A DNA stretch of 64,000 nt. Source: Kordia periserrulae (GTDB taxonomy: Bacteria > Bacteroidota > Bacteroidia > Flavobacteriales > Flavobacteriaceae). The notes below the pieces were generated by a model. The model saw only the letters and a program-made list of their open reading frames with translations. It was not told where the DNA came from and did not search any database. The stretch lies in contig NZ_QBKT01000001.1 of NCBI RefSeq assembly GCF_003054265.1, forward strand, positions 682,001 to 746,000, given 5' to 3'. Made by a program: the position numbers and the translations under genes. This document shows, piece after piece, positions 8,347 through 24,700 of the stretch; position 1 is the first letter of the stretch; each line of letters opens with the position of its first letter.

Positions 8347-8374
8347 CACGTACAATTTAAACGTAATTAAAAAA

Positions 8375-8704: not shown

Positions 8705-8748
8705 AGCGCATTCAATGTTCAATGTTTTTGATTCAAGGTTAATTTCTA

Positions 8749-9150
8749 ATGGCAACTATAAAACAGTTTGAAGATTTAGAAATCTGGAAACTAGCCAGAA
8801 CACTTTGTCAAGATATTTTTGAACTCGCAAACACCACCGAATTAAAAAGTGATTATAAGCTTTATCACCAAATAAATGCTTCTTCAGGTTCTATTATGGA
8901 CAATATTGCAGAAGGATTTGAACGAAATGGAAATAAAGAATTTATACAATTCTTGTCAATTGCAAAAGCATCTTGTGGAGAAACAAGGTCACAATTGTAT
9001 AGAATTTTAGACAGAAAGTACATTACAAGTGAAGCTTTTGACACATTGAAAATGAAAACACTTGTATTGAATAAGAAAATTAGCGCATTTATAAATTATT
9101 TGTCAAAAAGTGACCTAAAAGGAAGTAAGTATAAGAACAAGCAACCTTGA
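8749..9150 (+). CDS. four-helix-bundle protein (S23 / 23S rRNA intervening-sequence protein family)
   Basis: This 133-residue all-helical protein has family landmarks: '[11 protein letters not shown]' near the N terminus, '[15 protein letters not shown]' in the middle, '[20 protein letters not shown]', and a basic C terminus. Family members form pentamers and are often encoded within rRNA intervening sequences or as scattered single genes. Their function is not established, though one relative acts in diversity-generating retroelements. No such element is visible here. It sits between sufA and sufB in the same direction, with 44 and 33 bases of spacing, so it should be transcribed with the suf genes. 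It looks like an insertion into that operon rather than a SUF component. Confidence 0.88.
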
Positions 9151-9183
9151 ACGTGGAACTTTAAACTTTGAACAAACAAGAAA

Positions 9184-10632
9184 ATGAGTAAATATACCGA
9201 AGAAGAATTACAGAAAGAACTGGAAACGAAAGAGTATGAGTACGGTTTTTATACCGATTTGAAAAGTGATACGTTTCCCAAAGGTCTGAATGAAGATATT
9301 ATTCGAGCGATTTCTGCAAAGAAGAATGAACCCGAGTGGATGACGGAATGGCGCTTGGATGCATTTCGAATTTGGTCGGAAATGGAAGAACCCGATTGGG
9401 CAAATGTCAATTATGAAAAACCAGACTTTCAAGCCATTTCGTACTATTCTGCTCCTAAAAAAGCCGATCCCAACAAAACACTAGACGATGTTGACCCAGA
9501 GTTGCTGGAAATGTATAAGAAACTCGGAATTTCTGTTGATGAACAAAAGAAATTGCAAGGAGTTGCGATTGATGTCGTAGTGGATTCGGTTTCTGTGGCG
9601 ACGACTTTTAAAAAGACACTTGCCGAAAAAGGCATCATCTTCTGCCCTATTTCGGAAGCCATTCAGGAACATCCAGAATTGGTGAAAAAATATTTAGGAA
9701 CTGTTGTTCCGAAAAAAGATAACTTTTACGCCGCGCTGAATTCTGCGGTATTTACCGATGGTTCTTTTTGTTATATTCCAAAAGGCGTTCGTTGTCCGAT
9801 GGAATTATCAACCTATTTCCGAATCAATGAAGCGGGAACAGGACAGTTTGAGCGTACGTTGGTGATTGCAGACGAAGGCAGCTATGTGAGTTATTTGGAA
9901 GGTTGTACAGCACCATCGCGTGATGAAAATCAATTGCATGCTGCGGTCGTAGAATTGATTGCTTTGGACGATGCAGAAATCAAATATTCTACGGTACAAA
10001 ACTGGTTTCCAGGAAATGCTGAAGGAAAAGGTGGTGTGTACAATTTCGTAACCAAGCGTGGATTGTGCGAAACCAACTCTAAAATTTCGTGGACGCAAGT
10101 AGAAACAGGTTCGGCAGTAACGTGGAAATATCCAAGTTGTGTATTGAAAGGAGACAATTCGGTAGGAGAATTTTATTCTATCGCGGTAACCAATAATTAC
10201 CAGCAAGCAGATACAGGAACGAAGATGATTCATTTGGGAAAAAACACCAAAAGCACTATTATTTCTAAAGGAATTTCGGCAGGAAAATCACAAAATAGCT
10301 ATCGCGGATTGGTACAAATTTCGCCACGAGCAGAAAATGCGCGTAACTTCTCGCAGTGTGATTCACTCTTGATGGGAAATAAATGTGGCGCACATACTTT
10401 TCCGTATATCGAAGCAAAAAATAAAACAGCACAAGTAGAACACGAAGCTACCACTAGTAAAATTGGGGAAGATCAAATTTTTTACTGCAATCAACGAGGA
10501 ATTGACACTGAAAAAGCCATCGCTTTGATTGTAAATGGTTTTAGCAAAGACGTGTTGAACAAGTTACCAATGGAATTTGCCATAGAGGCACAAAAATTAT
10601 TAGAAATTTCCTTAGAAGGTTCTGTTGGATAA
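9184..10632 (+). CDS. sufB: SufB, scaffold of the SufBCD complex
   Basis: This 482-residue protein is highly similar in pattern to SufB: '[15 protein letters not shown]' near the N terminus, '[20 protein letters not shown]', '[26 protein letters not shown]', '[12 protein letters not shown]', and the C-terminal '[17 protein letters not shown]' with its conserved Cys. It ends with '[16 protein letters not shown]'. SufB assembles Fe-S clusters in complex with SufC and SufD in the cytoplasm. The start codon ATG at 9184 is preceded by an AAGAAA stretch rather than a strong Shine-Dalgarno site, as is common in this phylum. Confidence 0.97.
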
Positions 10633-10652
10633 GCAATCAAAAAAACTATACA

Positions 10653-11087
10653 ATGAAAAAAATCTATTTCATCCTTGCATTCGGACTTTTGCTAGTAAGT
10701 TGTAAAAACGAAACAAAAACAACAGATAAAGCCGCAAGCGAAACAGAAAAAAAAGAAGGTTTTACCGCAACAAAAACAGTTGGTGATGCGTATGACACGT
10801 TTTCCGGAATGTTTTTATACTTGGAAAATGAAAATGCTGCGGTGTTGAAAACATCAAACAGTCAAATGTATGCTGTGGTGATTGACGAAAAAATGCACGA
10901 ACTCAACAAGCAATGCGATCAGTTTAAACAAAACGAACACGATATGGTTCCTGTAGTTATTAGAGGAACTACGATGCCAAATCCTGTTAAAGACGGATGG
11001 CCAGAAGCTGTTGAAATTAAAGAAATTCTTTCCGTACAAAAACCAAGCGGAAATGATGGCACCATCATTATCACCAACAATCAATAA
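10653..11087 (+). CDS. lipoprotein of unknown function within the suf operon
   Basis: This 144-residue protein has a lipoprotein signal (lipobox LLVSC, Cys17). A Lys/Thr/Glu-rich linker follows, and then a small domain with 'YDTFSGMFLYLENENAAVLKT', 'MYAVVIDEKMHELNKQC' and 'VPVVIRGTTMPNPVKDGWPEAVEIKEIL'. The 'V.IRGT...EIKEI' pattern resembles small OB-fold-like lipoproteins, but I do not recognise a named family with certainty. It lies 20 bases after sufB and 34 before sufC, so it is co-transcribed. A periplasmic or outer-membrane lipoprotein has no known place in cytoplasmic Fe-S assembly, so its position may be accidental. Confidence 0.8.
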   Translation: MKKIYFILAFGLLLVSCKNETKTTDKAASETEKKEGFTATKTVGDAYDTFSGMFLYLENENAAVLKTSNSQMYAVVIDEKMHELNKQCDQFKQNEHDMVPVVIRGTTMPNPVKDGWPEAVEIKEILSVQKPSGNDGTIIITNNQ

Positions 11088-11121
11088 TTCGATTTACAAA
11101 AAATAGAAAACATAGTTTACC

Positions 11122-11874
11122 ATGTTACACATAAAAAATTTACACGCAGGTATTGAAGAAAAAGGAATTCTGAAAGGAATCAACCTTGAAGTAAAAGCAG
11201 GAGAAGTACATGCGATTATGGGACCAAACGGTTCTGGAAAAAGTACCTTATCATCTGTTATTGCAGGAAAAGAAGAATACGAAGTAACGGAAGGAGAAAT
11301 TTTCCTTAACGGAGAAAATATTGAAGAACTAGGACCTGAAGAGCGTGCGCATGAAGGTGTATTTTTATCATTCCAATATCCTGTAGAAATTCCTGGTGTT
11401 ACGGTAACCAACTTCATCAAAACGGCTATCAACGAAACGCGCAAAGCAAAAGGTTTGGAAGAAATGTCGGCAAGCGAAATGCTTAAAAAGATTCGTGAAA
11501 AAGCTGAATTACTCGAAATTGACCGTAAATTTTTATCGCGCTCGTTGAATGAAGGATTTTCTGGCGGAGAAAAAAAGCGTAATGAAATTTTTCAAATGGC
11601 AATGCTAGAGCCAAAATTAGCCATCTTAGACGAAACCGATTCTGGATTGGATATTGACGCGTTGCGAATTGTTGCCAATGGTGTGAATAAATTACGTAGC
11701 AAAGACAACGCTGTTATCGTCATTACGCACTATCAGCGTTTATTAGAATATATTGTGCCTGATTATGTTCACGTATTGCACGATGGAAAAATTGTAAAAT
11801 CAGGAACCAAAGAACTTGCTTTAGAGTTAGAAGAAAAAGGATACGATTGGATTAAGCAAGAAGCAACTATTTAA
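11122..11874 (+). CDS. sufC: SufC, ATPase of the SufBCD complex
   Basis: This 250-residue ABC-type ATPase carries Walker [10 protein letters not shown] (34-42) and the SUF-specific signature '[14 protein letters not shown]'. Walker B is '[16 protein letters not shown]', and the switch histidine is in '[14 protein letters not shown]'. These are the standard SufC motifs and the length is normal. ATP binding drives structural change in SufB-SufD during cluster assembly. It is followed 11 bases later by sufD. Confidence 0.97.
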
Positions 11875-11885
11875 GGAAGTACCAC

Positions 11886-13205
11886 ATGGAATTAAAAGAT
11901 AAATTATTGTCATCATTTATGGTTTTTGAAGATCGTGTTCACGATGAATCAAAGCATATTCATGACATTAGAAATCACGCAATAAAGACCTTTCAACAAA
12001 AAGGATTTCCTACAAAAAAAGACGAAGATTGGAAATATACGTCGCTAAATTCCATATTGAAGCACGATTATGTTATTTCGCCACGTCACGAATCAGCAAT
12101 TGAATTTAAGGAAGTTAAAAAGTATTTTATTCACGATATTGATACGTACAAAATTGTATTTATCGACGGAAAATACAGTTCGTTTCTATCCGAAACAACA
12201 CATGACGGCATTGATGTTTGCTTGATGAGTGCAGCGTTGAATCAGCCTAAGTATAAAGTGATTATAGATTCATACTATAACAAAGCTGCCAAAGACACAC
12301 ACAGTTTAACGTCGTTAAATACCGCGTTTGCTTCGGAAGGTGCGTACATTCACATTCCACGAAATAACGTAGTGAAAAAACCGATACAAATTATTCACTT
12401 TTCTACAGGAAGCGAAGCATCTGTGATGTTGCAACCGCGCAATTTGATTGTAGTTGATGAAAATTCACATGTGCAAATTATTGAGCGTCATCAAAGTTTA
12501 ACATCGAATGTTGTGTTGACAAATTCGGTTACAGAAATATTTGCCAATAAGCGTGCGATTGTCGATTATTACAAAATTCAAAACGACAACCAAGAAGCGT
12601 CGTTAATTGATAATACGTTTGTTTCTCAAAAGCAAAGCAGTAATGTTTCGGTGCATACCTTTTCTTTTGGCGGAAAGTTGGTGCGAAACAATTTGCAGTT
12701 TTTTCAAAAAGGAGAACGCATTGATTCTACCATGAAAGGTGTGACCATTATTGATGACAAACAACACGTTGACCACAACACATTGGTACATCATATTGAG
12801 CCAAATTGTGAAAGTCATCAAGATTATAAAGGAATTTTTGGCGGACGTTCTACAGGTGTTTTCAATGGAAAAGTAATTGTAGAAAAGGAAGCACAAAAGA
12901 CGAATGCGTTTCAAGCAAATAATAATATTTTGGTAGATGATAAAGCAACCATCAACACCAAACCACAACTTGAAATTTTTGCAGATGATGTAAAATGCTC
13001 GCACGGTTGTACCATTGGTCAGTTGGACAAAGATGCTTTATTTTATCTGCGTTCGCGCGGAATTCCCGAGAAGGAAGCAAAAGCATTGTTAATGTACGCG
13101 TTTGCAAATAACGTTTTAGCAAGCGTGAAAATAAACGCTATCAAAACGCGAATCACCAAGTTAATCGCACAAAAATTAGGTGTGAATTTAGGATTCGAAC
13201 TATAA
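11886..13205 (+). CDS. sufD: SufD, SufB partner
   Basis: This 439-residue protein has the SufD N-terminal part ('GFPTKKDEDWKYTSLNSILKHD') and the beta-helical core ending in 'FADDVKCSHGCTIGQLDKDALFYLRSRGI', with the conserved Cys-His. The family forms the SufBC2D complex and helps iron entry. It is the last gene of the forward suf operon. A rho-independent terminator begins 23 bases after the stop. In many flavobacteria sufS and sufE follow directly; here they are about 24-27 kb away on the other strand. Confidence 0.96.
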   Translation: MELKDKLLSSFMVFEDRVHDESKHIHDIRNHAIKTFQQKGFPTKKDEDWKYTSLNSILKHDYVISPRHESAIEFKEVKKYFIHDIDTYKIVFIDGKYSSFLSETTHDGIDVCLMSAALNQPKYKVIIDSYYNKAAKDTHSLTSLNTAFASEGAYIHIPRNNVVKKPIQIIHFSTGSEASVMLQPRNLIVVDENSHVQIIERHQSLTSNVVLTNSVTEIFANKRAIVDYYKIQNDNQEASLIDNTFVSQKQSSNVSVHTFSFGGKLVRNNLQFFQKGERIDSTMKGVTIIDDKQHVDHNTLVHHIEPNCESHQDYKGIFGGRSTGVFNGKVIVEKEAQKTNAFQANNNILVDDKATINTKPQLEIFADDVKCSHGCTIGQLDKDALFYLRSRGIPEKEAKALLMYAFANNVLASVKINAIKTRITKLIAQKLGVNLGFEL

Positions 13206-13228
13206 AAAATAGGACAAAAAAGAGAGAT

Positions 13229-13264
13229 AAAATCCCGAAGCGTTCATGCTTTGGGATTTTTTTT
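13229..13264. terminator. terminator after sufD (works in both directions)
   Basis: Arms AAAATCCCGAAGC (13229-13241) and GCTTTGGGATTTT (13248-13260) pair with one G-T mismatch around a 6-base loop, followed by a T-run to 13264. The converging minus-strand gene ends at 13268, so the A-run on the left can serve it as well. Confidence 0.85.
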
Positions 13265-13267
13265 GGC

Positions 13268-13804
13268 TTAAAGTTCAATTTCTTCTGCAATAATTCTGTA
13301 AATATCAACTTCAGGAAGCAGTGTTTGTAATTGCATTGCGACAGCTGTAAATTGAGAATCTTGTCGCAAACGCTTCCAAGTATTTTTTACGTATTGATTA
13401 AAGTTTTCCTGCGGTGATTGTTGATATGCTGGGTTTTCTTTGACCATCATTAAAATTTGCTGAATGGTTTCTCTTCCATTTGTCAACTTTGTTTTGATAG
13501 GCTCGTGCAATCCTGTCAACACACTATGCGCGGATTCTAAGCAATTGGCGCCAACCATTAACACGTGTCTTCTTTTTTGAGGAACATCATTTGTTTTTGC
13601 CACAAACAACTGATTTTGCAAAATGCTCATACGACTCGATTCTACCAATCCAAACTGCTTTAATGCTTGTTGATTTTCAGAAAGCCAACGCTCAATCTCC
13701 GCTAAAAAGCGAGAAGATTTGGAACGAAGCAATTCAGAAATCAATTCAACTTTGTAAATGGAAGCTTCAAAGAAGTTGTTTTTTTCTATGATACTTGTTT
13801 TCAT
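13268..13804 (-). CDS. hypothetical protein, third gene of the DUF2589 operon
   Basis: This 178-residue protein has no signal peptide and is predicted to be mostly helical. It begins 'KNNFFEASIYKVELISELL' and contains 'RFLAEIERWLSENQQALKQFG' and 'QYVKNTWKRLRQDSQF'. I do not recognise a family. It lies 46 bases downstream of the 246-residue gene and is the last of a three-gene minus-strand operon, ending at the terminator shared with sufD. Cytoplasmic location is inferred from the absence of a signal or membrane segment. Confidence 0.75.
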   Translation of the reverse strand: MKTSIIEKNNFFEASIYKVELISELLRSKSSRFLAEIERWLSENQQALKQFGLVESSRMSILQNQLFVAKTNDVPQKRRHVLMVGANCLESAHSVLTGLHEPIKTKLTNGRETIQQILMMVKENPAYQQSPQENFNQYVKNTWKRLRQDSQFTAVAMQLQTLLPEVDIYRIIAEEIEL

Positions 13805-13850
13805 TTGTTGCTGTTTTTGTTATTTTCACTTACGTGTGAAAACCATGGGT

Positions 13851-14591
13851 TTATAGATAATCTAATCGTTGTACGGTATTACCGTTTTCGTCTACATCAG
13901 TTGTCCATTCCATAGCGTCGTCCGTAATGTTTATTTTAATACTGATAAGATTCGTAGGATCGTTGATGGCTTCCAAACGTTGCGTTTCTACGATGACAGG
14001 AAGATCTTGAATTTCTGGCGTTCGTGGTTGTAAATTTTGTTCAATTTCTTGCACCATTGCTGTACGGAATACAGGCTCTTCAATATTCAAATCTGTCAAA
14101 AAGCCAAAAGAAACATCCACAAATTTATTTGCTGATATATTTAAAGCGTTGGCATATTCTGCGGAAGTAGTTCCGTCAGCAGATTCGCCTTCTGGTGCGG
14201 CAGTAGCTTCTGCTTGTTGTAAACGGGAAACTGTTGCGGTTGCTTCTACTTGTGCTTTAGTTGCCAATTCTGGTTGAATACTTTGTAAGTAGGCATTATG
14301 TTCATCAGCTCTATCTGCTAGTGAATCAGTAGTTACTTTGGTAAAAGCATCTTCATATACTTTTTGCACTTCGCTTTCCGTATAACTGCGTGCAACCGTT
14401 TGTGTAGTATCAACAGCAACTGGAATTGTTAACTGCATGTCTTTGATGCGTATGTTTGGCACGGCAAAATGTTTCAACATTGGATTTTCCACATATTCTT
14501 GGGCGATTGCTAAGGTTTCAATATCTGATTGTACTTTGGCATTGGTAACCTCTTTATAAATCTTTCCGATATAATCTTTTAAGGTAATCAT
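13851..14591 (-). CDS. hypothetical protein paired with a DUF2589 protein
   Basis: This 246-residue acidic protein has no signal peptide. Its N-terminal half is helical ('MITLKDYIGKIYKEVTNAKV') with a segment 'NIRIKDMQLTIPVAVDTT', which resembles the beta-edge statements of DUF2589-like proteins. An Ala/Glu/Thr-rich middle (about 105-150) is followed by a C-terminal part ending in 'SIKINITDDAMEWTTDVDENG'. I do not recognise a named family. It lies between the DUF2589 gene (68 bases upstream) and the 178-residue gene, so the three products may act together. Confidence 0.75.
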   Translation of the reverse strand: MITLKDYIGKIYKEVTNAKVQSDIETLAIAQEYVENPMLKHFAVPNIRIKDMQLTIPVAVDTTQTVARSYTESEVQKVYEDAFTKVTTDSLADRADEHNAYLQSIQPELATKAQVEATATVSRLQQAEATAAPEGESADGTTSAEYANALNISANKFVDVSFGFLTDLNIEEPVFRTAMVQEIEQNLQPRTPEIQDLPVIVETQRLEAINDPTNLISIKINITDDAMEWTTDVDENGNTVQRLDYL

Positions 14592-14659
14592 GATTTTTTT
14601 GTTTTTTTAAGTGGAAGAAACCTCCGAAGAGGCTTCTTCAATTGTTAATGAAATACGTT

Positions 14660-15196
14660 TTAAGATTCAATAATAGACTCTTCAAGCATGTCTAACACAC
14701 GACTCATTCCTGCTGGAAGTTCGTCTTGTACTGCATGAATTCTAACATTCATACTATAAGAACGCTTCGATTCGTCAGAGTACGTATTTTTCTTTTGGTA
14801 CGAGTAACTTCCTTTAAAGTCAAAACGTCCCCAAGCCCAACGTAAACTCAATTCAGCACTTAAATCTAATTTGTGAGAAGTTGTCGTGGTCACTTTGGTC
14901 ACACTAGAAATTTTAGCATTAAAATCGATAGTGGTATCGGCAACTCTCATGAATGGAATTGGCACAATGGTTAATAACGGTGTGGTTAATGTAACTTCTG
15001 TACTGATTCCGTCAATTAATTTGGAGTAAATAAATGATACATTTTTTACTTTCCCCAAATCATCTAAACCTACTTCGTTGATAAAATCAACCGTAGACAG
15101 TGCTGCTGCTGCTTGCGCATCAATAACTGCTGTTAATGGCTTTCCTAACATCGCACTAAAGTTGATGTTAGCAATCTCATTTGGATTAACTGGCAT
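14660..15196 (-). CDS. DUF2589 domain-containing protein
   Basis: This 178-residue protein has the DUF2589 opening, 'LGKPLTAVIDAQAAAALSTVDFINEVG', after which come 'VSFIYSKLID', 'TLTTPLLTIVPIPFMRVADTTIDFNAKISS' and a C-terminal strand-rich segment with 'GSYSYQKKNTYSDESKRSYSMNVRIHA'. The function of this family is not established. Sequences of this kind often occur as small gene groups. It is the first gene of a three-gene operon with its own promoter and a palindrome at the predicted transcript start. Confidence 0.82.
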   Translation of the reverse strand: MPVNPNEIANINFSAMLGKPLTAVIDAQAAAALSTVDFINEVGLDDLGKVKNVSFIYSKLIDGISTEVTLTTPLLTIVPIPFMRVADTTIDFNAKISSVTKVTTTTSHKLDLSAELSLRWAWGRFDFKGSYSYQKKNTYSDESKRSYSMNVRIHAVQDELPAGMSRVLDMLEESIIES

Positions 15197-15311
15197 AATT
15201 GTAATTTTTTAAAATTTTGTGCCTACTCTTTTTCAAAGGCTTTTCGGCTTTCTCCTTTTGTGCAAAAAATAGTCGCGAACAATTTCTTACGGATTTTAAG
15301 CTTAAAAAGAT

Positions 15312-15327
15312 ATTCTTTCGAAAGAAT
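15312..15327. promoter_or_regulatory. perfect 16-base palindrome at the transcript start of the DUF2589 operon
   Basis: The sequence ATTCTTTCGAAAGAAT is its own reverse complement. It lies 8 bases downstream of the predicted -7 box on the minus strand, right where transcription should begin. That position suits an operator for a dimeric repressor. No regulator gene is adjacent. The surrounding gap (15197-15556) otherwise shows no gene. Confidence 0.45.
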
Positions 15328-15334
15328 TACGGCG

Positions 15335-15364
15335 CAAACATACAACATTTGTTGTTTTACACAA
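15335..15364 (-). promoter_or_regulatory. promoter of the DUF2589 operon
   Basis: On the minus strand: TTG (15364-15362), a 19-base spacer and TATGTTTG (15342-15335), a full match to the Bacteroidota consensus. The 5' leader would be about 130 bases long. Confidence 0.6.
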
Positions 15365-15485
15365 ACATATTACAATATTTAATCCTGTAATTTCACATTA
15401 TAATAAGTAATATGTTTTAAAATGTATTGTTTAAAGTTGAAGTAAAGCGATTTCAAATTATGCTAGAATACACATATCACAAGAA

Positions 15486-15525
15486 AAAGAGCTGCAATGT
15501 ACCACGATGTACATTGCAGCTCTTT
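15486..15525. terminator. strong hairpin terminator of the serine hydrolase gene
   Basis: A perfect 17-base stem (arms 15486-15502 and 15509-15525, beginning AAAGAGCTGC) encloses the loop CACGAT. On the minus strand it is followed by a T-rich run, so it should end the transcript of the hydrolase gene. Confidence 0.85.
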
Positions 15526-15556
15526 GTAAAATTTTTGATTTTGTAGTTGCAGTTAC

Positions 15557-16900
15557 TTATTCAACCGCATTGCATATTTCACTTAGAAAACGATTAAAGT
15601 CGAGCGCATCTTTTCCAACCAATCCAAAACGCACTACTACCAAGTTTTTTGAAGGAATGATGTACACTCGCTGTCCTTGATATCCATTTGCCGAATACAT
15701 ATCTTTTGGTACATCTTTGTGAAATCCGCCAGCATTGAGCCAAAAATGACCGCCGTAACGTCCTTCTGATGTTGGTGTTGGTTTGGTAATATAATCTACC
15801 CAAGAATCGTCAAAAATACGTGTGCCGTTCCAGTCGCCTCTGTGTAAATACAACAAGCCAAATTTTGCCCAATCGCGCGGCGTTGCCCAACCATACGACG
15901 AACCTACATAGTTTCCATCCATGTCAGCTTCAATCAGCATAGAGTGCATGCCGATTTTATCGATAAAATTTGTGTACGGAAAATCTAAGTATTCTTGATG
16001 ACTGTTGAACTGTTGTCGCAAGATTCCCGATAGTAAATTAGACGTTCCAGAAGAGTAATTCCATGTTTCGTTTGGTTTTCCAACTAACGGTTTGTCTATT
16101 TGAGAAGCGGTCATGTCTTTGTCTAAAAAGAGCATTTTGGTGACATCAGAGATAGTATTGTAGTTTTCATCCCACTCCAAACCGCTGTTCATTTGCAATA
16201 AATTGTGAATGGTAATTTCTTTTCGTTCATCATTTTTCCAAGCTTCAATAGGTGCGTTGTCCAACACGCTCAATTTCCCTTGATATTCTAGTATTCCATA
16301 CATCGTGCTTACTAAGCTCTTCGTCATGGACCAACCTAAGATTTTGGAGTCTTTGTCAAACCCTTTTGCATATTTTTCAGCAATAATTTGGTCTTTATAG
16401 ATGACTAAAACCGCTCTTGTTTTTTTAACATCTTCACCGTCTACTTTTTCAAAAGCGTATTGTACTGCTTTGTTTACTTTTTCGTAATTGATATTAGAAA
16501 ACGTAGTGTCTTTTTGCGGCATGTTTCCATACGGATATGGCAACATTCGTATAGTAGTATCTCGTTGCGGAATTGGCGTTTTTTGAGTTACATCGTACTC
16601 ATCATCAATTAAAACACTACCTAAGCCTTTTCGATAGATGGCAGTACGTTCCATAAGTCCGTACACAGAAGCCGAAGCATATTTTTTTTGCTGATCTACA
16701 AAATCACGAGCAAATTTAATTGGTGAAAATCCATTATCTGTTGTATCGGTAAAAGCGGGCGCTCTTCCGGCAACAAAAACAGAAGAACTCATGTTTTTGG
16801 CAGAATATCCAGAAATGATATTCAGTTTAGAGTAATTGAATGCAATTAGCACTACAATTACTGCAATTATAACTCCTAGAATTTTTAAAGCTTTTTTCAT
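15557..16900 (-). CDS. serine hydrolase, beta-lactamase class C / penicillin-binding-like family
   Basis: This 447-residue protein has one N-terminal membrane helix (about 5-22), so the catalytic part faces the periplasm. The nucleophile motif S191-M-T-K194 sits in 'LGWSMTKSLVST', and the second motif is Y282-S-S rather than the usual Y-x-N. 'DWAKFGLLYLHRGDW' and 'GGHFWLNAGG' (in place of the K-T-G or H-x-G triad) follow. This is the layout of the class C beta-lactamase fold used by esterases, D-peptidases and beta-lactamases; the substrate cannot be told. The gene stands alone, with a strong terminator downstream. A CAAAGATA (16954-16961, TATCTTTG on the minus strand) may be its -7 box, but no -33 TTG is evident. 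Confidence 0.87.
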   Translation of the reverse strand: MKKALKILGVIIAVIVVLIAFNYSKLNIISGYSAKNMSSSVFVAGRAPAFTDTTDNGFSPIKFARDFVDQQKKYASASVYGLMERTAIYRKGLGSVLIDDEYDVTQKTPIPQRDTTIRMLPYPYGNMPQKDTTFSNINYEKVNKAVQYAFEKVDGEDVKKTRAVLVIYKDQIIAEKYAKGFDKDSKILGWSMTKSLVSTMYGILEYQGKLSVLDNAPIEAWKNDERKEITIHNLLQMNSGLEWDENYNTISDVTKMLFLDKDMTASQIDKPLVGKPNETWNYSSGTSNLLSGILRQQFNSHQEYLDFPYTNFIDKIGMHSMLIEADMDGNYVGSSYGWATPRDWAKFGLLYLHRGDWNGTRIFDDSWVDYITKPTPTSEGRYGGHFWLNAGGFHKDVPKDMYSANGYQGQRVYIIPSKNLVVVRFGLVGKDALDFNRFLSEICNAVE

Positions 16901-17193
16901 CTTTTTGTGGGCATTTAATGCTTGCTACGTTGATATTAGCAAACGACTGTCTTCAAAGATATTAAAATTAAAGTGATTTGTACTATGGTAGATTTTAGAC
17001 TTTTAGGCCTCAATTTTTATTGCGAAAAAAGTTAGTTTTAAAACATCTGTCAGAAAGCACAGTGTTTTTCCTATTTTAAAAAAAGGAAAAACACCTCTTA
17101 AAAGTATCTATAAAGCTGTTTTCCAATTAAGTAATTAAATACATATTTGTAAGTATGTTACGTAACAAAACTATAATTTAAAACTAGAAAACC

Positions 17194-17478
17194 ATGAAAA
17201 AAAAGAAAGCCAATTTAAAAAAGCTCTCGCTTAACAAGAAGGTTGTTTCTAATTTAGAAAGCCAACAAGCAAATGGAGGAGCGCCGTATTCGGTAAACAT
17301 TTGTCCAATCAATACGTTTTACAACTGCCCGATTAATACGCTCGCTTGTCCAAATACGCTAATTTGTCCGATTGACACGCGTTTACAATGTCCGATAGAT
17401 ACGCTGGTTTGCCCAATTGAAACTATTGAATGTCCTACGCTTGCATGTCCAATTGACACCGTAGGCTGTCCTTATTAA
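17194..17478 (+). CDS. CPxxT-repeat GG-leader peptide (RiPP-precursor-like)
   Basis: This 94-residue peptide has the leader NLKKLSLNKKVVSNLESQQA followed by NGG, matching Bacteroidota class I lanthipeptide-type leaders that are cleaved after GG. The core of about 63 residues contains nine Cys, each followed directly by Pro. Most units read C-P-(I)-(N/D/E)-T, with Cys spacing of 5-8 residues: CPINT, CPINT, CPNT, CPIDT, CPIDT, CPIET, CPT, CPIDT, and a final CPY. Cys and Thr thus alternate, as in peptides with thioether rings, but a Cys-Pro register of this sort is unusual. The next gene, 20 bases on, encodes a sister peptide. No synthetase, cyclase or transporter lies nearby. Confidence 0.78.
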   Translation: MKKKKANLKKLSLNKKVVSNLESQQANGGAPYSVNICPINTFYNCPINTLACPNTLICPIDTRLQCPIDTLVCPIETIECPTLACPIDTVGCPY

Positions 17479-17497
17479 TCCATTAAATACTTAAATC

Positions 17498-17758
17498 ATG
17501 AAAAAAAAGAAAACCAATTTGAAGAAGTTGACACTTAACAAAAAGGTCGTGTCAAAATTAGAAGAAGGTCAAGTAAACGGTGGAACCTTGATTACCTTGG
17601 CGTGTCCAGTGACATTATTATGTCCAAGAACGTTGGCATGTCCAGACACTTGGTTATGTCCACAAACGTTAGACTGTCCATTAACATTGGATTGTAGCTT
17701 TAACGGATGTAATTCATTTATTGATGATTGCCCATCCGCATTGGCGTGTCCATATTAA
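17498..17758 (+). CDS. CPxT-repeat GG-leader peptide, sister of the preceding gene
   Basis: This 86-residue peptide has a leader nearly the same as that of the upstream gene (NLKKLTLNKKVVSKLEEGQV, then NGG), so the two arose by duplication. The core begins with five CPxT units at a strict 6-residue period (CPVTLL, CPRTLA, CPDTWL, CPQTLD, CPLTLD). Then come CSFNG and CNSFIDD, and it closes with CPSALA and CPY. It shares the C-terminal CPY with its neighbour. The repeated six-residue period could build a regular coil or series of rings. The hairpin terminator 27 bases on closes the pair. Confidence 0.78.
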   Translation: MKKKKTNLKKLTLNKKVVSKLEEGQVNGGTLITLACPVTLLCPRTLACPDTWLCPQTLDCPLTLDCSFNGCNSFIDDCPSALACPY

Positions 17759-17784
17759 GAACAATTAGTATATACTATAGTATG

Positions 17785-17811
17785 AAAGCTGCTGTAAAAG
17801 GCAGCTTTTTT
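17785..17811 (+). terminator. terminator of the CP-repeat peptide pair
   Basis: Arms AAAGCTGC (17785-17792) and GCAGCTTT (17801-17808) enclose an 8-base loop, followed by a T-run to 17811. It overlaps the stop codon of the converging regulator gene by two bases. Confidence 0.85.
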
Positions 17812-18673
17812 AGTTTGCGAAGGTTTGTAAATAATTGCGCAAGTCTTGGTGTTTTTGCAGTACTAGTTTTTTTTTAAGCCTGTATTTGTGAGTGCGCACA
17901 CTTTCTTGATTGATTCCTAAAATGATGCGAATGTCTTCGTTAGACATGTTCATTTTTAGGTAACAGCAGTATTTTAAATCTTTTGCCGTAAGACAGGGAA
18001 ATTTAGTACTCAATTTTTTGATAAATTCTGGATTGATGTTTTCGAAATAATGTTTAAAATCGTCCCAATGTCTTTGGTCGCTATGCGTCATTTTGATGGT
18101 GTTTACGATGGACATTAAGCGCGTTTTGGTTGTTGCATCTACATCGCTATACAATTGTTTGATACGCTCTTTTATCTTATCTAGCACGGCTTTTTTTTGG
18201 TCGAGTTCCAACGTATATCGTGTTAAATCTTTGCTTTGATCTTGTGTGAATTTTCCTTTTGGCACAAACGATTTTGATGTTGAAATTATTTGTGTTTTTT
18301 GAATAAGTCGTAAAATCCCTAAGATATTTCCAACGAGGTTGTTGGATTGTATTCCATACTCAAAGGATTGACGAAATACCACTAAGTTTTCCCGAATTTT
18401 TAATTTTTGATGCTGTACGTTGGAATGCAAACACACTATAGGAATAGAAAAATCGCGGTTATAGGAAACTAGAGAATTAATCACATCTTGATTGTTTCTA
18501 AAACTAAGTACAATTAAAGTTGGTTGAATGGATGCTGATAATTGTACCATGTCTGACACGCGTGTAGCCGTAATGAAACTGTACTGATTCATCACTTGCA
18601 AACTTTTAAGGATTGCAGCTATTGAACTAGAAGTATCACTTCCTATGAGTATATTTTCATGCGTTGTCATCAC
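17810..18673 (-). CDS. LuxR-type helix-turn-helix regulator with a degenerate receiver-like N domain
   Basis: In this 287-residue protein the first 125 residues look like a receiver fold ('ILIGSDTSSSIAAILKSL', 'PTLIVLSFRN') but lack the Asp phospho-acceptor. A helical linker (about 150-200, 'LDQKKAVLDKIKERIKQLYSD') follows. The C-terminal part (about 225-287) has 'FPCLTAKDLKYCCYLKMNMSNEDIRIILGINQESVRTHKYRLKKKL', given here as adjoining parts of a LuxR-type helix-turn-helix. Regulators with this C-terminal form are common in Bacteroidota. It is transcribed toward the CP-repeat peptide genes and separated from them only by a terminator, so a regulatory link is possible but not shown. Confidence 0.8.
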   Translation of the reverse strand: MMTTHENILIGSDTSSSIAAILKSLQVMNQYSFITATRVSDMVQLSASIQPTLIVLSFRNNQDVINSLVSYNRDFSIPIVCLHSNVQHQKLKIRENLVVFRQSFEYGIQSNNLVGNILGILRLIQKTQIISTSKSFVPKGKFTQDQSKDLTRYTLELDQKKAVLDKIKERIKQLYSDVDATTKTRLMSIVNTIKMTHSDQRHWDDFKHYFENINPEFIKKLSTKFPCLTAKDLKYCCYLKMNMSNEDIRIILGINQESVRTHKYRLKKKLVLQKHQDLRNYLQTFAN

Positions 18674-18868
18674 TATAATATCGGTTGCAAATGTAATAGC
18701 GTATTTATGGGGAATCGCACAGTTATGAATACTTCAAATATATAGTTTAAACATTAAATAAAATACGGTAGAAATACTTGGTTTTAGTCGTTTTACTGTT
18801 AATTTATTACTGTGTTAGACCGCTTTTTGGAAACGAAAAATCTATGTGTAATTCACAAAAGCGCATAA

Positions 18869-18902
18869 AAAAACCTGTAACTTTTTACAGCTACAGGTTT
18901 TT
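18869..18902. terminator. terminator of the OmpA/T9SS operon
   Basis: Arms AAAAACCTGTA and TACAGGTTTTT (ending at 18902) enclose a 12-base loop. The A-run before it gives a T-run on the minus strand, where the OmpA-family gene ends at 18921. Confidence 0.8.
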
Positions 18903-18920
18903 AATATGATGTAAGATTGA

Positions 18921-20801
18921 TTAATCTTTGCTTACAATAATAAAGTCAGAACGACGATTTTGTTGGTGTTCTTCATCAGTACATTTCGTTCCGCAATCAA
19001 TCAACGGAGCTGCTTCTCCTTTTCCTTCACTGCTAAGGCGTGATGCATCAATTCCTTGTGAAATGATGTATTGTACCGTTGATTTAGCTCTTCTTTCTGA
19101 TAATTTTTGGTTGTATACTGCAGAACCTCTATTGTCTGTATGTGATTCTACTTTAATTACCATATTTGGATATTTGTTCATTGCATTTACTGCTTTATCC
19201 AATTCGAAAGCTGCTTCTTTGGTAATGTTGTGCTTGTCAAATTCAAAATAGATAGGATTTAACACAATCACATCTTCAATAATTTCTTCGATAGGCTCAA
19301 GTGCAATATCAATCGATTGTTCAGGATCGTCGCCACTATTCACTTCTACTCTTTGTGATACATAATCTTGGATAGAAGCTTCCAATACAGATGATTTGTC
19401 ACATTCTACTTTGAATACCACTTTTCCATCAGCATCGGTAGTTTTTGAACCTACATTGTTTCCTTGTGTATCAGCCAATATCACCATTGCTCCGCTTAAC
19501 GCTGCGCCAGTTTCTTTGTCTGTCACTGTAATTATATAATCAACATCACAAATTGGGTTGATTAAATCTACTTCGTAAATATCGTCACTTCCTTTTCCTC
19601 CTTCACGGTTAGAAGCTACAAATCCTTTTTTAGATTCTTCATCAAACGTAAAAGAGAAATCATCTGAGTTACTGTTTAACGGCGTTCCTAAGTTACGAAC
19701 CGCACCATACGAATCGTCTTTTATTTTTGCCGCAAATACGTCCAATCCTCCAATTCCTAAGTGTCCGTCAGAAGAAAAGTATAAGGTATTGTTGCTACTT
19801 ACATATGGGAAAAATTCTCTTCCTTCTGTATTGATGTCACCTCCTAAGTTTTCTGGCTCACCAAACGTTCCATCATCATTTATTGCCACTTTGTATAAGT
19901 CTGATTGACCTAATCCGCCTGGCATATCTGATGCAAAGTATAGTGTTTTTCCATCTGCACTTACGGCTGGATGTCCTACAGAATATTCGTCATTGTTGAA
20001 TGGAACTGGTTGCACATTTGTCCACTCACCACCAGACATTGTAGCTGTGTATAAGTTTAATGTTCCTTTTCCTTCTTCGTCTTTTTTGAATTTTCCATCG
20101 TAGTAACTCTCACGCGTGAAGTACATTGTTTTTCCATCTGGAGAGAAACTTACCGTTCCTTCGTGATATTTTGTATTGATATCGTCTGATAACGAAACGG
20201 CTTTTGACAATTCGCCATCTCCGCTATACGACGCCATGTAGATATCTAAATACGGTTGGTCGTTCCATCCGTATTTTCTTCCACCATCACGCGTAGACGT
20301 GAAATATACTGTGCTTCCTACTGCAAGTGCTCCAAAGTCAGAATTTTGCGTGTTGATTTCAGAATTCTTCACTTCAAACTTTGTCACTTTTGCTAAAATT
20401 TGCGGAATATAATTCGGGTTTTCATTGAATGCAATCGCTCTTTTATCATTTGGCTTCTTCGCGGCAAACTTTGCCATCCATTCGTTATGCTCTTGGTATT
20501 TTCCGTTTGCTTTTAGCATTTGTGCATATTTAAAATACACATCAGCACTGGTATTTCCTTCTGCAATGGTTTGTCGGTACCAACGTTCTGCTTCTTCCGT
20601 TTTAAAAAGATTGTAGTAACAGTTGGCTAACTGCTCATATACGTACGCGTCTGCTTCTTCAATAGCAATTTCTTGATATTCCTCAGCCGCTTTTACATAT
20701 TCAAGTCTGTTATATAACTTGTCTGCTTTTTTGGTTTTATCGTTCTGCGCAAATACATTTGAAGTAGCTAGAACGAGCAATAATATATATAATTTTTTCA
20801 T
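18921..20801 (-). CDS. OmpA-family protein with TPR and PD40 propeller, T9SS-associated
   Basis: This 626-residue protein is built as follows: signal peptide (1-18, ending VFAQ), TPR-like helices (about 20-110), and a propeller of PD40 repeats (about 140-410; 'SFSPDGKTMYFTRESYYDG', 'HPAVSADGKTLYFASDMPGG'). A carboxypeptidase-regulatory-like domain follows (about 420-510), then a C-terminal OmpA domain (about 510-626; 'YFEFDKHNITKEAAFELDK', 'VESHTDNRGS', 'NQKLSERRAKSTV') that binds peptidoglycan. Proteins of this layout accompany PorP/SprF proteins and gliding-motility substrates. It follows the PorP/SprF gene by 20 bases in the same operon and may anchor the surface machinery to the cell wall. 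Confidence 0.92.
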   Translation of the reverse strand: MKKLYILLLVLATSNVFAQNDKTKKADKLYNRLEYVKAAEEYQEIAIEEADAYVYEQLANCYYNLFKTEEAERWYRQTIAEGNTSADVYFKYAQMLKANGKYQEHNEWMAKFAAKKPNDKRAIAFNENPNYIPQILAKVTKFEVKNSEINTQNSDFGALAVGSTVYFTSTRDGGRKYGWNDQPYLDIYMASYSGDGELSKAVSLSDDINTKYHEGTVSFSPDGKTMYFTRESYYDGKFKKDEEGKGTLNLYTATMSGGEWTNVQPVPFNNDEYSVGHPAVSADGKTLYFASDMPGGLGQSDLYKVAINDDGTFGEPENLGGDINTEGREFFPYVSSNNTLYFSSDGHLGIGGLDVFAAKIKDDSYGAVRNLGTPLNSNSDDFSFTFDEESKKGFVASNREGGKGSDDIYEVDLINPICDVDYIITVTDKETGAALSGAMVILADTQGNNVGSKTTDADGKVVFKVECDKSSVLEASIQDYVSQRVEVNSGDDPEQSIDIALEPIEEIIEDVIVLNPIYFEFDKHNITKEAAFELDKAVNAMNKYPNMVIKVESHTDNRGSAVYNQKLSERRAKSTVQYIISQGIDASRLSSEGKGEAAPLIDCGTKCTDEEHQQNRRSDFIIVSKD

Positions 20802-20821
20802 TGTTATTGGCGTGTTAGGTT

Positions 20822-21739
20822 TTAGAAATATCTTGGCGAACGAGAAATTTTACGTGGGAAGTATAAATCGAATAGTAAAAATACTTCATGCGATGCATTG
20901 GCAACAGAAGAGATTTCTGAAGTTACTGCATCGTAGGCATATCCTATACGCAATCTCGGGTTAATCGCAAAGTTGACCATTCCACTGAAAGAGTCATCCA
21001 AACGGTACGAAGCTCCAATTTCAAATTTTTCATAAAACAAAGCATTCAAGTTCAAGTCAAATGATGTCGGTGCATCAAAAGCGGACTTTACTAAGAACGA
21101 TGGTTTTATTTTAGTATTTGGGCTAGCTTGGAATACATAACCACCTGTAAGGAAATAGTGTTGTACTTCCGAACCGAACGCTCTACCATTAACATCGAGG
21201 TGTTTTCCTTGTAAAAAGTTAGGCACCGATAATGCTAAATAGTAATTGTCGGAGTAGTAAAAAACTCCAGCTCCAATATTGAAAGTTGTTTCATTTACAT
21301 TACTAGAAAAGGCTTCATCTCCTTGGTCGATGAGTGTTGGGTTTACTTGTGATAGTAATCCTATATCGTGGAAGGTAAGTCCTCCTTTAATACCAAACGC
21401 CAATTTGTGAGCGCCTCCTAAGTTTAATGTATATGCAAAGTCTACGTAAGTGTTGGTTTCTTTTACAGGGCCAATTTGGTCTGAAATTAAAGAAAGTCCT
21501 AATCCTACGTTTTTACCGACTGGCGAATGCCCAAAGAACGTAAACGTTCTTGGGGCACCGTCAAATCCGGTCCATTGATTTCTGTATAGTGCACCTAAAG
21601 ATATTCCTTCTCTAGATCCTGCATACGCTGGATTAATAACTGCCATGTTGTACATATACTGAGTGTACTGAGGATCTTGCTGTGCAAATGATGGCAATGA
21701 AAAAAGTAATACAAATAGTGCGATATATAAGTTCTTCAT
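20822..21739 (-). CDS. PorP/SprF-family type IX secretion membrane protein
   Basis: This 305-residue protein has a signal peptide (1-19, ending SFAQ) and the family's opening 'QDPQYTQYMYNMAVINPAYAGSREGISLGALYRNQW'. A beta-rich barrel-like body follows, ending 'EVFLLFDLYFPRKI..SPRYF' with a terminal aromatic typical of outer-membrane barrels. SprF-type proteins are needed for export or surface attachment of particular T9SS cargo with a type B C-terminal domain, usually the protein encoded just upstream. That is the case here: the 1809-residue protein with a type B sorting domain precedes it by 53 bases. Confidence 0.95.
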   Translation of the reverse strand: MKNLYIALFVLLFSLPSFAQQDPQYTQYMYNMAVINPAYAGSREGISLGALYRNQWTGFDGAPRTFTFFGHSPVGKNVGLGLSLISDQIGPVKETNTYVDFAYTLNLGGAHKLAFGIKGGLTFHDIGLLSQVNPTLIDQGDEAFSSNVNETTFNIGAGVFYYSDNYYLALSVPNFLQGKHLDVNGRAFGSEVQHYFLTGGYVFQASPNTKIKPSFLVKSAFDAPTSFDLNLNALFYEKFEIGASYRLDDSFSGMVNFAINPRLRIGYAYDAVTSEISSVANASHEVFLLFDLYFPRKISRSPRYF

Positions 21740-21792
21740 GATATGATGTAATATTATTTTTAAGAATTTAGATGTTTAATGTAAGGGAAAAT

Positions 21793-24700
21793 CTATTTGT
21801 TAAGATAAATCCAACCGTTTTTAGATTCTCCATTTTCAAGTCTCAATACATAAAAATAAGTACCTACAGGTAATTCATCATTATCATTGGTTTGACCTCT
21901 CCATTCGTTTGTATAGTTATTCTTCTTATATACAGAACGACCATGAGAATTAAATATCTCTAATTCTTGTACTCTGAATGCTCTTAAATCCCATGTATCA
22001 TTTAGGTTATCTCCGTTTGGTGAAATTCCTTGCGGGAATGAACACATTGCGTTGATTACTGTAAATGTTTGTGAACTAGAACAACCATCGGCAGTAGTTA
22101 CTGTTACGGTATAATCTCCATCATCTGTTGCAACGAATTGTGCTCCATCGTTATCTAATGATGAACCTCCAGACCATTCGTATGTTACTGTTGCTGCGTC
22201 ATATCCACCATTGAGTGGAGTTACTGTAATGGTATATTCTCCATTAACACATTCGCCTTCAAGACCAATGTTTGTTGGATCAATTTGCATTAACACAACT
22301 ACTTCGAAACTATCTGTTGAGTAACAACCAGTAATATCATTTTGAATGCGGAGATATACTGTTCCACCTGCAGTACTGTATGCTGTTGGGTCTGCAAGCA
22401 TATTCATACCTGCTTCAGCATCTGCCAAGGTTTCATAATAGGTAACTGAAACGTCTGTTTGTGTCCCTATAACGTTGGCATCTTGTACTGTTAAGTCAAA
22501 TTCAGCAACTCCATCTAAGTCATCATCACAAGCTTCTAATGTTTGGGTTCCAACCACATCTGGATTGCTTTCAACTGTTACCGTAACATCATCTGTTAAT
22601 GTAACAAGGTTTCCATTTGCTAACGCATAGGTTATAGAAGCTGTGTATGTTGTTGTTTCCGTTGGTGATACCGTAATATCGGTATCATTACTGATAACGT
22701 TACCATCTTCATCTAACCATTCAAACGTGTAGTTAGGGTTTCCATCTGGAACAAATCTCCAAATTTCTTGCTCTGTAACTGTCCAAACTCCATTGTTTCG
22801 GTTTGCTGGTGCATATCCAACAGAACCTGCTCCATTTTGGATACCTACAATAGCAATTCCTCCATCATTCCAAGTTGTACAAACTGGCTTTTCAATTAAC
22901 AGTACATCAATCACATTAGATGATTCGTGTAATATAATTTGCTGTGTTGTCGTAATATTATTACATCCAAAATGTGGCACTTCGAAGAACGTTACTTTAA
23001 ATTGACGCTCTGGTGCAGTTCCTACAACAGCATATTCAATATAACCGCCAACACTTGGATCAATATCATGGAAAGCTCCGTGAATTGCATTGGTTGGTAC
23101 TGCTGGCGTAGGTAATAAATCACCTGGCGCAAAGTTCCAAGGACAGAAGTTTCCTGCATCAGATATATCAAATGATACCAAACCGTTTGCTCCAATAATT
23201 ACTTGCGTATATGTATTTCCAAAATATTCGAATTCAAAATCAATATTAATTGCAGAAGACCATCTATCATCTAGAGTAATAGAAGTTGGATCTCCTGTCA
23301 AGTTATCTGGCGGACATTGTAATTCACTTACTGAATACACACTTGTATCAGTTGTGATAGAACTTGACATGAATGTTGCCGATAAATCTGTAGACGTTAC
23401 ATCACAGGTTTGCAATTGATCATATCCTGCATTAATAATTCTACATTCTTGATCTGGACAGAATGCCTGTGTTTGTGGCTCACTTGTTAATACACAATTG
23501 TTATCATCGGTATCGGCAACTGTAATCACTACTGGCGTTGTATTTGGATACGGTCCAAATGTTAAAATACCAGGTGCACTAACCACTTGTGGTGCACTAC
23601 CGAAGTCATCACTAACTGTGATAGAAACTGCATCTCCCGTTGATAAGATTTCAACATCAATTAAGAATTGTTCTCCTGCTGCACAGTCATCAACAATTGT
23701 ATAGGTTGCCGTTGGTTTGAAACATGTCAAACATTCTGCAGTCCAATCCCAAGGAGTACCATTTCCGTTAGCACAACTTGTAAATCCGTCACTTTCTACT
23801 ACCATAAATAAGTTACCGCCTGTAGATTCGATTATCAATCCTGATAAATCTCCTGCGTTATTTGTTGTAGTAATAAGAGTAGCTGGATCGGCTGTTGAAC
23901 CGTCATAGAACGAAATAACATCATCATCATCTATAATAGTTCCTGAGTTGAATGTCAATCTTACAGGGAAACCTGAATCACTTGTAAATAAAAATGTATT
24001 ATCATCATTGTTGGTGTAACAATGGTTTACATTGATTGGTCCGTTTGCACAAACCAAGTTAAATATTTGATTTGGGTCAGGTCTAGTTGTAAAGCTTTCT
24101 TCAATACATCCTGTTGCAAGTCCATTAGCATTATATGGTAATATTGTTATATAATAAGTAGTTAAATAGTCTGTATCTAAAGGATATGTATTTACGTTTC
24201 CTACATCTATTCCATTCACAATATCCGAGCCGCCTGGCGTAGTTCCAACTATTAAAATATATCCTGCTGGATTTCCAATGGCAGAACCCCAAGTGATATT
24301 TTGATCTATTTCAATACCTGTTGCACCATCCGTAGGGAATGTTAACGACACACATGTTGGTGGCGCTGTTGGATCTATACATGCAACGCTGAAGTCAAGT
24401 GGTGTATATCCTTGTGACTGACAAGAAAATATTCCATCCGATTGTACGGTAACAGAAATTGAAGGACCTGAAGATTCAAATACCAATCCTGCTACGTTTC
24501 CTGCGTTTCCATATCCGTTGTATAATTGTGTAACTCCATCTGAATCAAACACAATCAGTTCGTCCCAGTTGTTCTCTACTTGTCCTGCATTGAAAACGAT
24601 TCCTAATGTTGAAACACCGTCTGAGCTGTAAAATGTAAATACAGTAGTATCGTTATCAGTATAACAGTACGTTGTATTTACTGGACCAGCAGCACAATCT

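What the first reader, a model, noticed from the sequence alone, without database searches (positions are those of the whole stretch)
17194..17758. Two sister peptides made of Cys-Pro-x-x-Thr repeats behind a GG leader
Both peptides share a 'LKKLxLNKKVVSxL...NGG' leader and end in CPY, but their cores are regular repeats. The first has nine Cys, all followed by Pro, mostly as CPI(N/D/E)T. The second opens with five CPxTL(x) units at a strict six-residue period. If the Thr are dehydrated and joined to Cys, each repeat would give a small ring, but a Pro next to every Cys is unlike the lanthipeptides I know. An unmodified beta-solenoid held by disulfides or metal is also possible. Known: the leader type is associated with class I lanthipeptide-like precursors in Bacteroidota. 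Inferred: that these cores are modified.
Basis: partly seen in the sequence, partly recalled or inferred. Interest (0 to 1): 0.78.

Follow-up and report, generated by a model that had tools for sequence, protein, structure and literature searches.

The report
Kordia lanthipeptide pair with Cys-Pro repeats
Two neighbouring genes in a marine Kordia bacterium encode small peptides built from Thr-x-x-Cys-Pro repeats that most likely become chains of eight or nine tiny thioether rings, made by one enzyme set that appears to serve dozens of such peptides scattered around the genome.

Summary
Two adjacent ORFs (17194-17478, 17498-17758, +) carry a class I lanthipeptide leader (NF038153, above cut-off) and Cys-Pro repeat cores. 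The locus is in 11 of 11 Kordia genomes; peptide 1 is under purifying selection (dN 0.11, dS 0.96).

Best reading: a class I lanthipeptide pair. In type 1 peptides every Cys (91 of 91, 11 copies) has Ser/Thr 3-4 residues upstream. The first Cys does in 22 of 22 peptides of both types, and 19 of 22 have no Ser/Thr after the last Cys.

No modifying enzyme was seen beside the pair. Each Kordia genome has one LanB with LanC beside it; in this genome a C39 exporter lies nearby. Over-cut-off leaders occur in 6 of 149 family genomes, all with LanB. The own genome yielded 65 leader-motif ORFs: a class I parallel to prochlorosins.

Also found: a conserved 33-bp dyad and a palindrome upstream.

Chemistry and function are untested. 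Kordia's RiPP richness is published; my searches found no report of the CP pair.

The parts
17194..17478 (+). precursor peptide 1 (94 aa): leader 1-29 (17194-17280), core 30-94 (17281-17475) with 9 Cys and 9 Ser/Thr
17498..17758 (+). precursor peptide 2 (86 aa): leader 1-29 (17498-17584), core 30-86 (17585-17755) with 9 Cys and 10 Ser/Thr
17062..17094 (.). 33-bp dyad GTGTTTTTCCT-N11-AGGAAAAACAC; a loose form occurs exactly once, at this locus, in 9 of 11 genus genomes; with 1 and 3 mismatches at this locus in the other two
17157..17166 (.). palindrome GTTACGTAAC just upstream of the start codon; exact in 10 of 11 genomes
17784..17809 (+). intrinsic terminator-like hairpin after the two genes
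15557..16900 (-). beta-lactamase-family serine hydrolase (Pfam on the window copy only), divergent neighbour in 11 of 11 genomes by N-terminus; role in the system unknown
17810..18673 (-). LuxR/GerE-like regulator (Pfam match below cut-off), convergent neighbour in 6 of the 10 genomes where the contig reaches far enough; role unknown

Best explanation
The two ORFs are precursors of a pair of class I lanthipeptides. The LxLxKx5L leader is recognised in trans by the genome's single split LanB (glutamyl-transfer protein plus separate elimination protein). LanB dehydrates the core Thr/Ser. The adjacent LanC then adds each Cys to the dehydrobutyrine/dehydroalanine lying 3-4 residues before it. The result is a string of 8-9 non-overlapping small (methyl)lanthionine rings separated by short Pro-containing linkers. 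A C39 ABC exporter near LanB cuts after Gly-Gly and secretes the product. Shown: ORFs, leader family, conservation, selection on Cys/Pro/Thr, the Thr-before-Cys pattern, presence of LanB/LanC/C39, and leader-LanB co-occurrence. Inferred: which enzyme acts, the rings, their direction, the cut site and secretion. Function: a hydrophobic, mostly acidic or neutral structural or surface-active peptide pair rather than a cationic antibiotic (a guess from composition, about 30%).
For: Leader above the NF038153 cut-off in both and a letter match to the LxLxKx5L motif with GG and C39 peptidase published for Bacteroidetes class I precursors (passages of PMC7268733). One LanB in each of 11 of 11 genus genomes, frames of 753-770 aa, too short to hold the C domain; a LanC match beside it in 11 of 11; separate Lant_dehydr_C and C39 ABC exporter in the own genome. 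LanC aligns over the AWCYG and CHG motifs. Over-cut-off leaders occur in 6 of 149 family genomes, all 6 among the 15 of 149 with LanB (about 4e-7 by hand, own genome included); in 4 of the 5 others a leader lies 1.6-11 kb from LanB. LanM (PF13575) is in 2 of 149. G003 (one contig, 100% complete) has a single LanC match, the LanB-linked one, and keeps a CP peptide. Type 1: 91 of 91 Cys with Ser/Thr at -3/-4; type 2: 72 of 94, or 87 of 94 at -3 to -5. In 63 other own cores Ser/Thr is enriched at -5 and -4 (81 vs 58.3; 75 vs 58.6) and lower at +5 (35 vs 46.7). YcaO 0 of 11.
Against: No lanthipeptide enzyme was seen among the ORFs around the pair (listing of window 8000-28000, read by eye; Pfam only on five flanking ORFs). 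In type 2 the Cys-to-Thr spacing (2-3 residues in 74 of 77 single-Ser/Thr intervals) is tighter than the Thr-to-Cys spacing (3-6), so direction rests there on the N-terminal cap. In the 63 other cores -3 is not enriched (66 vs 61.5), and there is an unexplained Ser/Thr excess at +2 (84 vs 55.8). Three of 22 tails do carry Ser/Thr. Some type 2 orthologues lose most CP motifs (3 of 8 Cys in G001 and G009). Nine of the 15 LanB genomes have no over-cut-off leader, and weak leader matches (E up to 0.1) occur in 13 genomes without LanB. Other lanthionine enzymes exist in the own genome: LanM, a kinase/HopA1/LanC set and another LanC. No expression or mass data.
Confidence: 0.7

Rival explanations
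1. The peptides are lanthipeptides, but Cys joins the Thr that FOLLOWS it (ring within CPxxT), or rings overlap, or only some Thr are cyclised and the rest stay dehydrated.
For: In type 1, Thr at +4 from Cys is as regular (63 of 80) as Thr at -3 (59 of 91), and in type 2 Ser/Thr at +2 (52 of 90) and +3 (32 of 85) dominates. Reversed rings are known in cinnamycin-type lanthipeptides (recalled).
Against: The first Cys has a Ser/Thr 3-4 residues upstream in 22 of 22, and the last Cys has none downstream in 19 of 22. In type 1, Thr-to-Cys distance is 3 or 4 in 75 of 75 single-Ser/Thr intervals whereas Cys-to-Thr ranges 1-6.
Confidence: 0.13
2. The leader is used only for export; the Cys-Pro repeats stay unmodified and form disulfides, bind metal or fold as a small solenoid.
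For: The repeat is very regular, no enzyme was seen beside the genes, and core Cys are conserved. Most type 1 cores (8 of 11) have an even number of Cys.
Against: AlphaFold2 finds no fold (mean pLDDT 38.4, no strand, one leader helix), though the alignment is shallow. Nine of 22 cores have an odd number of Cys (9), including both in the window. Between the window and G010, Thr is kept as strictly as Cys (0 of 8 and 0 of 9 replaced). Over-cut-off leaders occur only in LanB genomes of the family sample.
Confidence: 0.1
3. Another lanthionine enzyme set of the genome (LanM, kinase/HopA1/LanC set, or lone LanC) modifies the pair.
For: These sets exist in the own genome, and several genus genomes hold further LanC-like frames of 340-654 aa that I did not identify.
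Against: LanC frames of LanM size (974-982 aa) occur in 3 of 11 Kordia genomes and of the C10 size (426-427 aa) in 10 of 11, whereas CP peptides and LanB are in 11 of 11; G003 has only the LanB-linked LanC match. DUF4135 was not searched across the genus.
Confidence: 0.05
4. Other Cys/Thr chemistry, such as azole formation or radical-SAM thioethers.
For: A survey lists radical-SAM RiPPs as well as lanthipeptides in Kordia (section 7 of PMC11118758).
Against: YcaO 0 of 11 genus genomes. Thr is kept as strictly as Cys in the pair compared. Radical-SAM enzymes were not searched.
Confidence: 0.05

Closest known systems
Class I lanthipeptides of Bacteroidota (LxLxKx5L leaders; family NF038153; pinensins are, per PMC7268733, the only ones isolated from the phylum by 2020)
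   Same: Leader motif, GG end, LanB plus LanC plus C39 exporter in the genome, Ser/Thr and Cys in the core.
   Different: The gene pair sits far from the enzymes. The core is a short tandem repeat predicting 8-9 consecutive small rings, with Pro after all nine (peptide 1) or seven of nine (peptide 2) Cys in the window.
Prochlorosins / synechococsins (class II, ProcM or SyncM)
   Same: Works like it: one synthetase set and dozens of genome-dispersed precursors with a shared leader and divergent cores (29 ProcA and 79 SyncA reported, passages of PMC10783134).
   Different: Class I split LanB/LanC instead of LanM, and an NF038153 leader instead of Nif11. Not a member.
Nisin ring B (recalled)
   Same: Thr-x-x-Cys methyllanthionine ring size.
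   Different: Eight or nine small rings in a row instead of one of five different rings.
SapT / morphogenetic class I lanthipeptides
   Same: Split LanB system (passages of PMC9486935); hydrophobic product (recalled).
   Different: Streptomyces product; no sequence link was tested.

Membership tests
class I lanthipeptide precursor | leader of a known class I family | tested here: met
   NF038153 over cut-off in both peptides
class I lanthipeptide precursor | cognate LanB dehydratase (both halves) in the genome | tested here: met
   PF04738 once per genome in 11 of 11; PF14028 protein next to it in the own genome
class I lanthipeptide precursor | LanC cyclase with metal-ligand motifs | tested here: met
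   PF05147 beside LanB in 11 of 11; in the own genome AWCYG and CHG aligned with a solved LanC-like protein
class I lanthipeptide precursor | enzymes encoded in the same gene cluster as the precursor | tested here: not met
   none seen in the ORF list 8000-28000 (by eye); LanB lies on contig C7, the pair on C1. Usual but not defining; remote precursors are known for prochlorosins
class I lanthipeptide precursor | Ser/Thr available for each Cys at ring distance | tested here: met
   91 of 91 Cys at -3/-4 in type 1; 87 of 94 at -3 to -5 in type 2
class I lanthipeptide precursor | (methyl)lanthionine in the product | not testable with these tools
   needs mass spectrometry or NMR
prochlorosin family | LanM (ProcM-type) synthetase | tested here: not met
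   the enzyme found in 11 of 11 is LanB with LanC; LanC frames of LanM size in 3 of 11 only
prochlorosin family | Nif11-type leader | tested here: not met
   only NF038153 in NCBIfam and no Pfam match at E up to 1
beta-solenoid / folded repeat protein | predicted regular strand fold | tested here: inconclusive
   AlphaFold2 mean pLDDT 38.4, no strands; shallow alignment of nine rows

The most novel reading that the evidence does not exclude
Kordia runs a class I counterpart of the prochlorosin system: one conserved split LanB/LanC machine modifies dozens of dispersed precursors. The CP pair is its genus-wide core product, a rod of 8-9 consecutive four- or five-residue methyllanthionine rings hinged by Cys-Pro, under its own operator (33-bp dyad plus palindrome), acting as a two-component structural or signalling peptide rather than an antibiotic.
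Probability: 0.35. Interest if true: 0.8.

Novelty: new variant of a known kind. Interest (0 to 1): 0.62.

Why it matters
Known lanthipeptides have a handful of mostly different rings (recalled). A uniform tandem array of small rings with Pro after nearly every Cys would be a new scaffold, genetically tunable in length: orthologues differ by whole repeat units. It would also give an easy test of whether a class I LanB/LanC pair can be as tolerant of its substrates as ProcM, which matters for peptide engineering. That CP peptides are kept at one locus in 11 of 11 Kordia genomes suggests a shared basic role.

Tried and rejected
Beta-solenoid: AlphaFold2 of peptide 1 with eight relatives gave no fold; no fold search was made because the model is of no use. 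Azole chemistry: no YcaO in 11 genomes. CP arrays outside Kordia: eight other genomes of the class scored E 6e-4 to 1e-2; of the 19 loci fetched from them I translated 16 (13 with Cys-rich frames, mostly low-complexity repeats, no leader seen; three with none). Regulatory elements shared with other precursors: at the time the exact palindrome was in 31 of 185 loci, all of them CP loci by origin, and the loose dyad was found once in each of 9 of 11 genomes, at the CP locus, so I reject these two elements as a common precursor regulon signal. The sigma-70 scan found no promoter-like site on the + strand in 16850-17900 (four on the - strand, 3.2 expected), and TAnnTTTG (recalled consensus) was at chance level in the window. 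Pfam search of the peptides: nothing. Literature on CP repeats or a class I prochlorosin-like system in Kordia: none seen in the listings (open-access library only).

Mended on re-check: Cys numbers of type 1 (eight cores with 8, three with 9), the missing enrichment at -3 in other cores, LanB genomes without leader, and the limits of the dyad and neighbour counts.

Full report
OBSERVATION. The two ORFs exist as described. Peptide 1 (17194-17478) has nine core Cys, all followed by Pro; peptide 2 (17498-17758) has nine, seven followed by Pro. Both leaders pass the curated cut-off of NCBIfam NF038153 'lant_leader_L1a, class I lanthipeptide' (24.2 and 26.3 bits, cut-off 22). A terminator-like hairpin follows at 17784-17809.

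CONSERVATION. The window lies in a Kordia genome: of its ten genus-mates in the held set, eight have a CP-locus contig whose length equals that of a named Kordia contig, for example K. algicida OT-1, K. zhangzhouensis, K. aestuariivivens and K. jejudonensis (compare). The CP locus is found in 11 of 11 genomes, in each beside a divergent gene whose product starts like the window's beta-lactamase-family hydrolase (N-termini compared by eye; Pfam on the window copy only). Sorting by eye, type 1 is in 10 genomes (11 copies, one duplicate) and type 2 in all 11; G003 keeps only a type 2 gene. Repeat number varies: eight type 1 cores have 8 Cys and three have 9. Between the window and G010, peptide 1 has dS 0.96 and dN 0.11; in the core 0 of 27 Cys, Pro and Thr are replaced while 12 of the 27 changed codon silently, and 12 of 37 other non-Ser residues are replaced. 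A core-only search of 395 class genomes gave eight further genomes at E 6e-4 to 1e-2. I translated 16 of the 19 loci fetched from them: 13 gave Cys-rich frames, mostly low-complexity repeats, where I saw no such leader by eye, and three gave none.

RING LOGIC. I counted, for each Cys, Ser/Thr since the previous Cys. In the 11 type 1 cores, 91 of 91 Cys have one at -3 or -4. In the 11 type 2 cores, 72 of 94 do, and 87 of 94 at -3 to -5. In the window's peptide 1 the count is 9 Cys to 9 Ser/Thr. Because the unit repeats, Thr is also regular relative to the preceding Cys (+4 in 63 of 80 type 1 cases), so the ends decide: the first Cys has a Ser/Thr at -3/-4 in 22 of 22 peptides although no repeat unit precedes it, and 19 of 22 tails after the last Cys hold no Ser/Thr. 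Where a type 1 interval holds a single Ser/Thr, Thr-to-Cys is 3 or 4 in 75 of 75 and Cys-to-Thr spreads over 1-6. Against this, type 2 shows the opposite tightness (Cys-to-Thr 2-3 in 74 of 77, Thr-to-Cys 3-6). These sequences are related, so the counts are not independent trials. In 63 other cores of the own genome, Ser/Thr is enriched upstream of Cys at -5 and -4 (81 vs 58.3 and 75 vs 58.6 in shuffles), less so at -6 (66 vs 52.6), and not at -3 (66 vs 61.5); it is lower at +5 (35 vs 46.7), but there is an unexplained excess at +2 (84 vs 55.8). The simplest reading for the CP pair is a chain of small Thr-to-Cys rings of about the size of nisin ring B (recalled).

MACHINERY. No RiPP enzyme was seen in the ORF list of 8000-28000 (read by eye; Pfam on five flanking ORFs). 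The genome has one LanB (PF04738) on another contig, in a row with LanC and a separate Lant_dehydr_C protein, preceded by a sigma factor and followed by regulators, another leader-bearing ORF, and an HlyD plus C39-peptidase ABC exporter. LanB matches solved lantibiotic dehydratases including NisB and entry 5ehk; LanC aligns over the AWCYG and CHG motifs with a solved LanC-like protein. All 11 Kordia genomes have exactly one LanB match, in frames of 753-770 aa, with a LanC match beside it. G003, on one contig, has only that one LanC match, yet keeps a CP peptide; a LanM half without LanC was not searched there. In 149 Flavobacteriaceae genomes, over-cut-off leaders occur in 6, and all 6 are among the 15 with LanB (about 4e-7 by hand calculation; the own genome is one of the six). 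In four of the other five a leader lies 1.6-11 kb from LanB on the same contig. Nine of the 15 LanB genomes have no over-cut-off leader, and 13 of the 22 genomes with any match at E up to 0.1 lack LanB. LanM is in 2 of 149. YcaO is in 0 of 11 Kordia.

DISPERSED PRECURSORS. NF038153 gives 85 matches at E up to 1 in the own genome, 15 marked over the cut-off; weak ones may be chance. In the fetched stretches around them my motif filter found 66 ORFs; one kinase-like fragment was dropped, leaving 65, of which 63 have two or more core Cys and 61 a GG. The two lists were not matched one to one, so some of the 85 were not captured. One LanB against some 65 candidate precursors is the prochlorosin arrangement with different enzymes. 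Another genus (G110) shows seven matches at E up to 0.1 with one LanB.

REGULATION. The intergenic region carries a dyad GTGTTTTTCCT-N11-AGGAAAAACAC at 17062-17094 and a palindrome GTTACGTAAC at 17157-17166. With a slightly loose pattern the dyad occurs exactly once in each of 9 of 11 genomes, each time at this locus, and with 1 and 3 mismatches at this locus in the other two, where only the 3.3-kb loci were searched at that looseness. The palindrome is exact in 10 of 11 CP loci and occurs at three places in the own genome. Changes in the dyad arms break symmetry instead of compensating (by eye), so I read it as a protein-binding site; the regulator is unknown. It could serve the divergent hydrolase as well.

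FUNCTION. Cores carry net charge -6 to +2 (16 of 22 negative), at most one Lys, and positive hydropathy, unlike cationic lantibiotics (recalled). A structural, surface-active or signalling role is my guess.

LITERATURE. PMC7268733 (passages) describes the LxLxKx5L leader with GG and C39 in Bacteroidetes class I clusters. PMC11118758 (passages; section 7) already calls Kordia an example of a RiPP-rich genus and reports up to 176 precursors in a Bacteroidota genome. PMC10734526 (passages) and PMC7477175 (passages) mention Kordia RiPP or lanthipeptide clusters. PMC10783134 (passages) gives the prochlorosin numbers, PMC9486935 (passages) the split-LanB note. I saw no report of the CP pair or of a class I prochlorosin-like system in the listings.

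Noticed in passing
L159 (G000:C10:20000-39000), 8856-15554 minus strand: A LanC (420 aa), a HopA1-domain protein, an APH-type kinase and a nearby subtilase lie around a 313-aa ORF made of GPTGTQGCT-like repeats (P0001) with no Pfam match: it looks like a class V-type lanthionine set (class label recalled) with a giant multi-repeat precursor.
   Followed up: partly
window 6749-6934 (-), 29836-30000, 30032-30205, 30243-30413, 30452-30634 (+): Five further ORFs with the same leader type (four of them's list); the four at 29.8-30.6 kb form a tandem of sister peptides with short cores of two or three Cys and a CxxCP near the end.
   Followed up: no
L161 (G000:C1:230000-246000), 6120-8844: A LanC (412 aa) beside a transglutaminase-fold protein and leader-bearing precursors; no dehydratase was seen in the short ORF list.
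   Followed up: no
G000:C2:127984-130857 (L160) and G000:C3:264513-265649: A 957-aa LanM-like protein (DUF4135 plus LanC) and a second, shorter DUF4135 frame (518 aa) on another contig.
   Followed up: no
window 13268-15196 (-): Three ORFs in a row: a DUF2589 protein and two with no Pfam match.
   Followed up: no
63 other own-genome cores: Ser/Thr excess two residues after Cys (84 vs 55.8 in shuffles) and Cys-Pro excess (43 vs 20.6), unexplained by simple rings.
   Followed up: partly
whole own genome: The palindrome GTTACGTAAC occurs 3 times per strand against 18 for its reversed control, so it may be avoided elsewhere.
   Followed up: no
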